Assembly (NCBI GenBank): GCA_026389365.1
Contig: JAPLHZ010000139.1
Location: 1 to 56,086 of the forward strand
DNA from: Cyanobacteriota bacterium
Lineage (GTDB): Bacteria; Cyanobacteriota; Cyanobacteriia; Leptolyngbyales; Leptolyngbyaceae
Direction: 5' to 3'
DNA: 56,086 nucleotides
In this document: piece after piece, positions 4,586 to 8,076 of the stretch
How the letters are laid out: each line of letters opens with the position of its first letter
Position numbering within the stretch: position 1 is the first letter of the stretch
Made by a program: the position numbers and the translations under genes
Notes under the pieces: generated by a model
The model's database searches: none
Seen by the model: only the letters and a program-made list of their open reading frames with translations
Told to the model about the DNA's origin: nothing

Positions 4586-5176
4586 ATGGCATTGACCAAG
4601 GCGAGATTTGCAAGCTTTGAAACGTATCTAGCGGCTGAGCCATCAGATTTGCCGGAAGCTCGCTGTGAATATTGGAATGGAGAATTGATTCCGGTTATGT
4701 CTGAGTCTATTGGTAATGATACGATCGCAAATTTTATTTTTTTGGCATTACTTGCGATCGGTTTACCGTTTAAACTCGTCAGACCGGGCAGCATAGAAGT
4801 TGTCGTTAATAGAAAACCTCGGGCGTGATTCCCCGATTTAACAGTGTTGGAGGAGATTCATTTAACGCTTCTCAAACGCCGTGCGACGATTAGTCAAGAC
4901 ATGCCTGCGCCTAGGATGGTTTTAGAAGTTGTTTCTCCGGGTGATGAGAAGTCTGATAATTACAGACGAGATTATCAAGAAAAACTATATCAGTATGGCA
5001 ATCGGGGAATTCCTGAGTATTGGATTGTTGATCCCGATCGGGAATGGATAATGGTTGGATGTTTGATTCAAGGAGAATATCAATTTGATACTTTTCGGGG
5101 TGACGATACTATTGTTTCTCCGACATTTCCTGAATTCATATTGACGATCGCAGAAGTCTTGGAAGCTGGACGGTAA
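4586..5176 (+). pseudogene. Uma2-family endonuclease, interrupted by one in-frame TGA
   Basis: The frame opens at 4586 and reads as a Uma2 (DUF820) nuclease: FASFETYLAAEP, then CEYWNGELIPV. A TGA at 4826-4828 follows RKPRA. The same frame continues without shift into FPDLTVLEEIHL, PRMVLEVVSPG and [11 protein letters not shown], which is the normal second half. Intact homologues usually read R-(F/Y)-PDLTV here, so TGA most simply replaces CGA. The full length would be 196 residues, which is usual. The PD-(D/E)xK-type core residues (D in PDLTV, E-V in LEVVSPG) are intact. A GTG at 4844 could restart translation, but the product would lack the N-terminal third. Either a pseudogene or a sequencing error. 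Confidence 0.8.
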
Positions 5177-5253
5177 GCTTTTCATGAGTTTTCGCGAAAG
5201 GTGTCGAGGGAAGGTTCGATCGGACTTACTCCTGCTGTCCTGTTCTGCTGTAA

Positions 5254-5730
5254 TCACCCACTGATAGGTTGTTTTGAGAGCGATGCTTTTTGGAGTTCGG
5301 CTAGGTAGTAACGATCGGTGCCTTCTTCTGTATGGTGGGCGATGATGCCGAGGGTTTCTAGGCTTTCGAGACAGTCGGGAATGGTGGCTTTTTGTTTGGC
5401 GGTGCCTTTGAATTGGGCGGCGATCGCGGCCACGGTCCATTCGTTGCCTTGGGTTCGCAGAAGATCCCGGACGGCGGCGAGTAGGTCTTTGAAGGCTTTT
5501 GGGAATTTTTGTTGTTCGGTGGGGATGGGAATGGTTTCGATCGGGGGTTCTATGCCGGGGAGAGTTTGTTGTGATCGGCCCGCCTTGAGGATTTGGACGA
5601 TCGACCCCCAGCGCATCACACATCTCCGCAAAAAACATCTGATAATTTGCCCGTTCCTTCCCACCGGCCCTCTCCCACCGCACTACAAACACATTCACGC
5701 GCTCGGCTGTTTGTGGATCTAATGTTGTTG
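5254..5730 (-). pseudogene. Internally deleted MmeI-like (type IIL) methylase remnant
   Basis: Two pieces of one family are joined. The higher-coordinate part reads [19 protein letters not shown] then [13 protein letters not shown], the conserved N-terminus of class I SAM-dependent DNA methyltransferases of the MmeI/type IIL kind. At about 5570-5590 the reading passes into another frame that gives [20 protein letters not shown], then an about 80-residue winged-helix-like segment ([13 protein letters not shown]...[11 protein letters not shown]) typical of their C-termini. The several hundred residues of methylase and target-recognition domain between them are missing. The usual ATG seems lost too. 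A second N-terminal remnant lies at 7679-7924. Confidence 0.65.
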
Positions 5731-5877: not shown

Positions 5878-6753
5878 TTATGGCAACCAATCTAGATCTT
5901 TCGCAATAATTAACTCTGTCTTTTTCGCATGATGAGTATTCTTCATTGCGATTAACCTTGTTTCAAACTTGCAATTCTTTGCCATTTTCATAACATCTTC
6001 AGAATCATCATACGTCATCAAAAAATCACCTTGTAGACTATTTACCACTTGAAATAAATATTCATGATCAACTTGTGAATATCGATAAAGTCGTTTTCCC
6101 GCTTTAATGTAAGGTGGATCAATAAAATAAACGATATTACTCCTGTCAGCATTCATTTCACATACGCTAATAGCATCACCTTGAATGAACTGAATACGAT
6201 GTTTAACTTTGTCAATTTCAAGAATCCGTTTCTTCAGGGTTTCAGGATACCATCGTGATGTAATTCCCTTCCCACTCTCTCCATTCTTGATAAAACTCGC
6301 TCCATCAGCTAAGATTCCACCTCGGTTAACCCGATTTTTAACAATTGTTGCAAAAGCGAGAGACTCTAATGATTCACTCGCTTTTAAGATCGCATCTCTT
6401 GCTGTTTCAGGTGTAAGCTGAAATTTTAAAATTGTATTGCCTAGCCATTCTGCGCCACCATTGAGGATCACCTTCCAAACTGCTGCAACCCCTTCATCTT
6501 TTTCGACCATCGTTACACGATCAACCAAATTTTCCATCACTGCGGTAAGACTAACAATTCCTCCCCCCGCAAAGGGTTCGATCAATTCTATATCGGGACC
6601 ACCAGAATATTGTAGCCACTGTCGGATGCGAGGAACGAGCCAAGTTTTTCCACCCGCATAGCGAAAAGGGCTGCGCTGAGGGACAGTGGCAATGTTCACG
6701 ATGGGATATCGATCTTTTCTGGAAATGGGTTCTAGCAGTTCAAGCTGGTGCAT
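5878..6753 (-). CDS. DNA adenine-N6 methyltransferase, D12 (Dam) class
   Basis: The protein has 291 residues. The Dam-type opening FRYAGGKTWLVPRIRQWL is followed by SAM-binding motif I (IEPFAGGGIVSLTA, about residue 58) and the catalytic motif IV DPPY (FIDPPYIKAGKRLY, about residue 213). The order and length (260-300) fit the MethyltransfD12 family, which methylates adenine N6, often in GATC. It starts 12 bp after the NotI-like nuclease gene on the same strand and is presumably its protective partner. Because that nuclease is now frameshifted, the methylase may act as an orphan. The first 25 residues precede the conserved core and might be a lineage extension. Confidence 0.85.
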   Translation of the reverse strand: MHQLELLEPISRKDRYPIVNIATVPQRSPFRYAGGKTWLVPRIRQWLQYSGGPDIELIEPFAGGGIVSLTAVMENLVDRVTMVEKDEGVAAVWKVILNGGAEWLGNTILKFQLTPETARDAILKASESLESLAFATIVKNRVNRGGILADGASFIKNGESGKGITSRWYPETLKKRILEIDKVKHRIQFIQGDAISVCEMNADRSNIVYFIDPPYIKAGKRLYRYSQVDHEYLFQVVNSLQGDFLMTYDDSEDVMKMAKNCKFETRLIAMKNTHHAKKTELIIAKDLDWLP

Positions 6754-6765
6754 TTTACTAGTCTC

Positions 6766-7645
6766 CTAGAGCAAGGGTAAATCAGTGATAGTTTGTGTAT
6801 CAGGTGAGCTATCTAATTTGCTATCTAGCTTCCGCTGTAAAACATCTATAAAATCTTCTAGTTTGCCAACTTGCGGAGTTGAAATACGGTTAAGAGCCGC
6901 CCAATACTCTGTATAAATAGTTTTAGTGAGTGTTAGATTAAACTTCTCTCCTTGTGGTTCTAAATCGTAGAGTTTCCAAGCAATCTCGGCATCTTGTTGC
7001 TGAACCTGAGGCAATTGTGGAAGGGTCTCAAAAAATCTTTTCTGAACAGCAATCGCTTGTTTTTTACCCCATTCTTGTAAGATTGTCCCTTTATACAGAA
7101 GCTGAGGGACGAGTCGTTTTCGGGAAGAGGATAGATAATCTGGAGTAGGATAATAGGCAGCTAGCTTAGACCAATCTACCGAATCCCATCCTTCAGGATT
7201 ATTCATATAGGTTATAGGTTTCAAAGGGCTGACGGACGTTGCCTGAAATGTACACTGCTTGTACTTCAATCGCTCCAAAATCGAGAACTCTACCTCGATC
7301 GTCATAGGAAACCAACACAATATCAATATTGCCCGCAGATTGGCCCTGAGCATCTTTTAGGCGAACTTCAGTTAGTGAAGTCCAGTTCGCTTGTTCCCCA
7401 AAAAAGAATGACGCAGCATTTTCAGCAATCAACCAGTCTTGCCGGAAGCGAACAGGACAAGTAATAACAGGCGATTCTTTATGATAAATACTACAAACAC
7501 CCAGTGGATCGTTGGCCTTGTCTTTTGTGCAATTTGGAACTTTATTATTGTAAGGACATAGCTTGTTCTTTCGATATCGTTGTGCTGATTCCGAGAAGCT
7601 ATTACTGGGAAATCCAAAGACCTCTGCAAGGGGATTATTAGACAT
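6766..7645 (-). pseudogene. NotI-family type II restriction endonuclease, frameshifted by a 7-bp tandem duplication
   Basis: The first frame (7645 to 7199) gives MSNNPLAEVFGF, the Cys-rich block LCPYNNKVPNCTKDKAN, GVCSIY and CPVRFRQDW, then TSLTEVRL...GNIDIVLV...FGAIEVQAVYISGN. These are features of the NotI restriction enzyme family, with Fe-binding cysteines and a PD-(D/E)xK-type core. It stops after ETYNLYE. A second frame continues from MNNPEGWDS through PDYLSSSRKRL, which is the expected remainder. At 7206-7219 the plus strand contains TATAGGT twice in tandem; removing one copy gives one open frame of 290 residues reading ETYMNNPEG. The duplication therefore explains the break. It may be a dead gene, a reversible variant or an assembly error. 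Confidence 0.8.
7206..7219. repeat. 7-bp tandem duplication inside the NotI-like gene
   Basis: TATAGGT is present twice, head to tail. Because seven is not a multiple of three, the second copy shifts the reading frame; one copy would leave the nuclease gene open. Confidence 0.9.
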
Positions 7646-7678: not shown

Positions 7679-7924
7679 TTAAGGATACCGTGTAAATTCG
7701 ATTATCGCCGGAATCTGCTGCGGGTTTATCGAATAATCAAACCCATAAGCGATCGTGCCTCCCTGCGGATTCGGTCGATCGACCCCCAGCGCATCACACA
7801 TCTCCGCAAAAAACATCTGATAATTCGCCCGTTCCTTCCCGCCCGCCTTCTCCCACCGCAGCACAAATTTCTCAACCCGCGCAATATCCAAATCCGTCAT
7901 CGTAGTCGTCAGGGCATTGATCAT
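7679..7924 (-). pseudogene. N-terminal remnant of an MmeI-like DNA methyltransferase
   Basis: An 81-residue frame begins MINALTTTMTDLDIARVEKF and continues [20 protein letters not shown] and [13 protein letters not shown], the conserved N-terminal helix bundle of type IIL/class I DNA methyltransferases (full proteins are usually over 900 residues). It ends after FDYSINPQQIPAIIEF in a stop 33 bp before the NotI-like gene. No methylase domain follows. Positions 7776-7867 are about 92% identical to 5598-5689 in the other remnant, with the flanking sequence more diverged. Confidence 0.7.
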
Positions 7925-8076
7925 TGCATTACTCAGCAGTCAGGAAAAAACTAAAAACCTTTCCCCTCATCATCTCCCCTTCTCACCGAAATCGCGCACA
8001 AAAAATAGTTCAAAAAAGATCAAAAAAAAGCGATCGTATTGGAATTACCCAACCGATCGGGCGTTTTTATGAACGT

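What the first reader, a model, noticed from the sequence alone, without database searches (positions are those of the whole stretch)
6766..7645. NotI-like restriction gene broken by an exact 7-bp tandem duplication
TATAGGT occurs twice in tandem at 7206-7219. With one copy the gene is a single 290-codon frame reading ETYMNNPEG across the joint; with two it is split. The rest of both halves looks well conserved, so the event is recent or reversible. The neighbouring methylase is intact, which is the safe state.
Basis: seen in the sequence. Interest (0 to 1): 0.6.

Follow-up and report, generated by a model that had tools for sequence, protein, structure and literature searches.

The report
Broken restriction gene, intact partner methylase
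A cyanobacterium carries a DNA-cutting enzyme gene knocked out by a 7-base stutter while its protective partner gene is intact; this is an ordinary, safe way for such defence systems to decay, and the same family has lost the cutter repeatedly elsewhere.

Summary
TATAGGT occurs twice in tandem at 7206-7219, exactly where the frame of a conserved 290-codon gene switches. A 7-bp tandem repeat alone is not rare (4 in the window, 3.6 expected); its position makes it a lesion. The gene is a NotI-family (PF12183) restriction endonuclease, confirmed by Pfam and by fold: a model of an intact relative matches NotI 3C25 at E 1.2e-8. Its partner is an intact D12-class N6-adenine methylase, so the target must contain adenine and is not NotI's GCGGCCGC. 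Both halves keep all 59 family-invariant residues, so the break is recent (below about 2.2% neutral divergence). No strain or read data could be reached, so one versus two copies in the population is untested. In relatives R is broken beside an intact M in seven more loci by different lesions; M was truncated beside a largely intact R in only one lineage. Neighbouring nuclease genes are decaying too: Uma2 has a nonsense codon and a type IIG gene is gutted around the cassette. Best reading: recent loss of restriction leaving a solitary methylase, probably through a slippage duplication. Reversible switching is possible but unsupported. A known kind of event, of low interest.

The parts
7199..7645 (-). 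N-terminal half of the NotI-family restriction gene: Cys4 region, catalytic DFGAIEVQ strand, first 144 codons plus 4 out-of-frame codons and stop
   Evidence: Pfam PF12183 119 bits; aligns to residues 1-144 of L005 R at 85%
7206..7219 (.). two exact copies of TATAGGT (ACCTATA on the coding strand); the frame-breaking tandem duplication
   Evidence: frame switch at residue 144
6766..7206 (-). C-terminal half of the restriction gene, open from an in-frame ATG at 7206-7204 that overlaps the N-half stop codon (ATGAATAA)
   Evidence: Pfam PF12183 85 bits; aligns to residues 144-289 of L005 R at 73%; overlap read from sequence
5878..6753 (-). intact D12-class DNA N6-adenine methyltransferase, 12 bp downstream of R
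   Evidence: PF02086; 52 of 52 invariant residues kept, DPPY at residue 212
7728..8059 (-). upstream part and first about 66 codons of a type IIG (MmeI-like) restriction-methyltransferase gene: remnant
   Evidence: 94.6% to congener G006 contig C10, where the gene is an intact 1160-aa ORF (PADLOC REase_MTase_IIG 1378 bits)
5215..5689 (-). second remnant of the type IIG gene: a copy of codons about 20-58 (5573-5689, direct repeat of 7751-7867) joined to the C-terminal end (5215-5571)
4586..5176 (+). Uma2-family gene with a nonsense codon TGA at 4826-4828 where two congeners read CGA

Best explanation
A two-gene type II restriction-modification operon (NotI-family R followed by a D12 N6-adenine M) has recently lost restriction. 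A 7-bp tandem duplication after codon 144 shifts the frame, so translation yields a 148-aa stub that carries the catalytic strand but lacks the C-terminal core strands. M is intact and probably still methylates the genome, leaving a solitary methylase, the only order of loss that does not expose the host to cutting. The duplication most likely arose by polymerase slippage. Shown: the lesion, family membership, an intact M frame, recency, and repeated R loss in relatives. Inferred: absence of R activity, M activity, and the slippage mechanism.
For: The frame switches exactly at the duplication and 26 intact relatives read through it. The fold of an intact relative is NotI. All 59 invariant R residues are kept, giving less than 2.2% neutral divergence since the break. 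M keeps 52 of 52 invariant residues. Seven further loci have R broken by other lesions beside an intact M: L041 (IS with 9-bp target duplication), L009 and L069 (deletions), L040, L016 and L027 (frameshifts), L029 (nonsense). Only one lineage (L033/L036) has M truncated beside a largely intact R. One-sided binomial p = 0.02. Degraded REases beside orphan MTases are documented (PMC6471742, citing Seshasayee et al.).
Against: No reads, expression or methylome data. The relatives were found mainly with the N half of R and many are metagenome bins; two of the eight lesions (L016, L027) lie in T-runs and could be sequencing errors, and without them the asymmetry is 6 to 1, p = 0.06. The C half keeps its own ATG overlapping the N-half stop, so both halves could still be made.
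Confidence: 0.82

Rival explanations
1. Reversible on/off switch: loss or gain of one 7-bp copy toggles restriction while M stays on.
For: The lesion is an exact tandem duplication and both halves are fully conserved. Short duplications inside pneumococcal capsule genes are reported as phase-variable (Waite et al. 2001 and 2003, cited in PMC4022640).
Against: Only two short copies; no single-copy allele found anywhere. Relatives show other, mostly irreversible lesions rather than copy-number variants. Neighbouring Uma2 and type IIG genes are also broken.
Confidence: 0.07
2. Assembly or sequencing artefact: the true genome has one copy and an intact R.
For: The genome is a 412-contig draft and no read support could be checked. 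All 59 invariant residues are kept, as expected for a live gene.
Against: An exact 7-bp duplication in non-repetitive, non-homopolymer sequence is not a usual error of either short or long reads (general knowledge). R loss is common in this family, and two other genes beside it carry lesions of different kinds.
Confidence: 0.06
3. Two-piece enzyme: the N half (148 aa) and the C half (146 aa, ATG overlapping the N-half stop as ATGAATAA) are both translated by coupled reinitiation and assemble into an active endonuclease. No conserved residue is lost, only a peptide bond.
For: The overlap is in the sequence. The break, 144/145, lies near the end of helix 138-146, before a short turn, in the model. 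All invariant residues are present across the two pieces.
Against: Core strands (194-199, 219-243) are in the other piece from the catalytic strand (120-129). The split is seen in this genome only. The Met at 145 also occurs in intact relatives, so it did not arise for this purpose. No evident ribosome-binding site by eye.
Confidence: 0.04
4. Transposon footprint: the gene is dead as in the best explanation, but the 7 bp is a target-site duplication left by an excised element rather than a slippage product.
For: A relative (L041) has an insertion sequence at codon 138, six codons away.
Against: That element makes a 9-bp duplication, TGTACGCAG, at a different position. Bacterial excision rarely leaves a bare duplicated target (general knowledge). 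No element residue lies between the copies.
Confidence: 0.05

Closest known systems
NotI (PDB 3C25, 3BVQ) and Pfam PF12183
   Same: Same fold (Foldseek E 1.2e-8, TM 0.70), Pfam match to both halves, E-x-Q in the active site, glutamine in place of lysine as in NotI (PMC4081073), four conserved cysteines as expected for its Cys4 iron site
   Different: About 14% identity over the fold alignment; shorter (290 aa against about 350 residues in the NotI chains); partner is an N6-adenine methylase, so the target must contain A, unlike GCGGCCGC
NotI-family REase plus DNA adenine methylase pair of Thermus brockianus plasmid pTbrSNM4-1c (NZ_AP025595.1)
   Same: Same gene order and strand, R then M; R N-half 71% and M 53% identical
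   Different: R intact in one frame; on a plasmid
Solitary DNA methyltransferases beside degraded REase genes (Seshasayee et al., cited in PMC6471742; PMC3874152)
   Same: Intact M beside an inactivated R
   Different: R here is almost undamaged, so the transition is very recent
Phase-variable genes switched by tandem duplication (pneumococcal cap genes, Waite et al., cited in PMC4022640)
   Same: Short in-gene tandem duplication shifting the frame
   Different: No evidence of reversion or of a second allele here

Membership tests
NotI-family type II restriction endonuclease (PF12183) | Profile match above the curated cut-off | tested here: met
   119 and 85 bits for the two halves, cut-off 22; intact relative L005 210 bits
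NotI-family type II restriction endonuclease (PF12183) | NotI fold | tested here: met
   Model of L005 R, pLDDT 85; top PDB hits are the three NotI chains
NotI-family type II restriction endonuclease (PF12183) | Catalytic D...ExQ and four cysteines | tested here: met
   C30, C39, C51, C63, D108, E127, Q129 invariant and kept in the window's N half
NotI-family type II restriction endonuclease (PF12183) | Single uninterrupted reading frame giving an active enzyme | tested here: not met
   Frame broken at 7206-7219: this copy is a broken member
NotI-family type II restriction endonuclease (PF12183) | Cleavage at GCGGCCGC (NotI's own specificity) | not testable with these tools
   Unlikely because the partner is an N6-adenine methylase
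Type II restriction-modification system | Adjacent cognate R and M genes | tested here: met
   R then M, 12 bp apart; in 386 cyanobacterial genomes R and M hits fall in the same 5
Solitary (orphan) methyltransferase | M present without functional cognate R | tested here: met
   By sequence only: R frame broken, M intact
Solitary (orphan) methyltransferase | M active in the cell | not testable with these tools
   Needs a methylome
Phase-variable restriction gene | Two alleles in one population or species | tested here: inconclusive
   No second allele in the own assembly, three congeners or viral contigs; no sister strains or reads available
Phase-variable restriction gene | Hypermutable tract (many short repeats or a long homopolymer) | tested here: not met
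   Only 2.1 copies of a 7-mer

The most novel reading that the evidence does not exclude
The split gene is a natural two-piece NotI-type endonuclease, or a two-copy switch, in which an overlapping stop-start (ATGAATAA) keeps both halves expressed, so that restriction is reduced or toggled rather than lost.
Probability: 0.07. Interest if true: 0.5.

Novelty: new member of a known kind. Interest (0 to 1): 0.2.

Why it matters
It is a clean, very recent example of the first step from a restriction-modification system to a solitary methylase. At family level it gives a small natural experiment: eight different lesions in R beside intact M, one lineage with the reverse. The uncharacterised NotI-fold plus adenine-methylase pairing also implies an unknown, adenine-containing specificity.

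Tried and rejected
The lesion of L019 was rejected as a run of N. L034 is a solitary NotI-like gene beside nitrogenase-type genes with a degenerate LSSSRKR motif and was left out of the tally. Sequence search of the PDB missed NotI; only the fold search found it. Transposon footprint was considered and rejected because the neighbouring relative's element makes 9-bp duplications. A first test of M invariants wrongly included the window itself and was rerun without it.

Full report
What is there. On the - strand of a cyanobacterial contig (G000:C230 in a 412-contig draft) lies a two-gene unit: a restriction gene from 7645 to 6766 and, 12 bp further on, a D12-class DNA N6-adenine methylase from 6753 to 5878. 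The motif TATAGGT is present twice in tandem at 7206-7219. The two parts of the restriction gene match adjacent stretches of Pfam NotI, profile positions 6-149 and 148-236, with 119 and 85 bits. Against an intact 290-aa relative (L005) they align to residues 1-144 and 144-289 in different frames.

Is it more than chance. A perfect 7-bp tandem duplication alone is not: the window has 4 and composition predicts 3.6. Its position is what counts, because it lies at the point where the frame of a conserved gene switches and 26 intact relatives read straight through.

What the protein is. An AlphaFold model of the intact relative (pLDDT 85) has the three NotI chains as its top and only convincing PDB matches (E about 1e-8, TM 0.70, 14% identity). 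The active-site strand reads DFGxxEVQ, with glutamine in place of the usual lysine as reported for NotI (PMC4081073), and the four cysteines expected for NotI's metal site are invariant. Membership is thus good by sequence and fold. Specificity is another matter: the partner is an adenine methylase in this genome and in the annotated Thermus brockianus plasmid pair, so the target must contain adenine and cannot be GCGGCCGC.

State of the gene. The duplication falls after codon 144, near the end of helix 138-146 and after the catalytic strand; core strands at 194-199 and 219-243 are cut off from the N half. All 59 columns invariant among intact relatives are unchanged in the window, which puts the break at less than about 2.2% neutral divergence (95% bound). 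The methylase keeps all 52 invariant columns.

Comparison within the family. Relatives were collected from genome contigs, plasmids, viral contigs and cyanobacterial genomes. R is broken beside an intact M in seven other loci, each by its own lesion: an insertion sequence with a 9-bp target duplication (L041), a 273-bp in-frame deletion (L009), a short frameshifting deletion (L040), a large internal deletion (L069), frameshifts in T-runs (L016, L027) and a nonsense codon (L029). The reverse, M truncated with R largely kept, is seen in one lineage (L033/L036), where a HaeII-like gene sits between. Eight to one gives p = 0.02; leaving out the two T-run cases, six to one gives p = 0.06. L009 and L040 carry different lesions although their methylases are 99% identical. 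Cyanobacteria alone give five to none. Caveats: the search used the N half of R, and many loci are metagenome bins; sequencing errors should however hit R and M alike.

Surroundings. The unit sits inside the remains of a type IIG restriction-methyltransferase gene that is a whole 1160-aa ORF in a congener. In the window only its two ends remain, and a 117-bp piece of its start is present on both sides of the unit (5573-5689 and 7751-7867, 104 of 117 identical). If these repeats were identical at insertion, the unit arrived well before R broke. Just beyond, a Uma2-family gene has a nonsense codon that two congeners lack. Three nuclease genes of one cluster are thus dead or dying by three different routes, which fits decay better than regulated switching.

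How it most likely works. Translation of R stops after 148 residues; the methylase downstream is untouched. Losing R first is the safe order, since losing M first would expose the chromosome (argument as in PMC6471742). Degraded REases beside orphan methylases have been reported (Seshasayee et al., cited there). The duplication probably came from polymerase slippage; only one base of homology beyond the unit is present. A switch, an artefact, a transposon footprint and a two-piece enzyme (the C half has an ATG overlapping the N-half stop) are not excluded but have no positive evidence beyond the anatomy.

Verdict. Observation confirmed; reading partly supported (loss yes, reversibility not shown). 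A new example of a known kind of event, low interest.

Noticed in passing
window 4586-5176 (+): Uma2-family gene interrupted by TGA at 4826-4828 where congeners G006 and G007 read CGA.
   Followed up: yes
window 5215-5689 and 7728-8059: Two remnants of a type IIG gene flank the R-M unit with a 117-bp direct repeat (89% identical), resembling R-M insertion with a long target duplication. Synteny with G006 and G007 breaks at both outer edges.
   Followed up: partly
L041/L003 (same-family genome G015): The same R gene is interrupted by an insertion sequence with a 9-bp target duplication at codon 138. Together with L009's deletion start, three of five cyanobacterial lesions begin within codons 138-144 (post hoc p about 0.02 by a scan-statistic estimate of mine).
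   Followed up: partly
L033 4332-5523, L036 4853-6046: A HaeII-like gene lies between NotI-like R and a methylase reduced to its last about 73 residues.
   Followed up: no
L034 3449-4819: Solitary NotI-like gene in a Chlorobiaceae bin beside nitrogenase-type genes, with LSSSRKR changed to VSAQRES and no methylase near.
   Followed up: no
window 5878-6753: The methylase's best PADLOC match is PD-Lambda-5_B (155 bits), above ordinary type II methylases.
   Followed up: no
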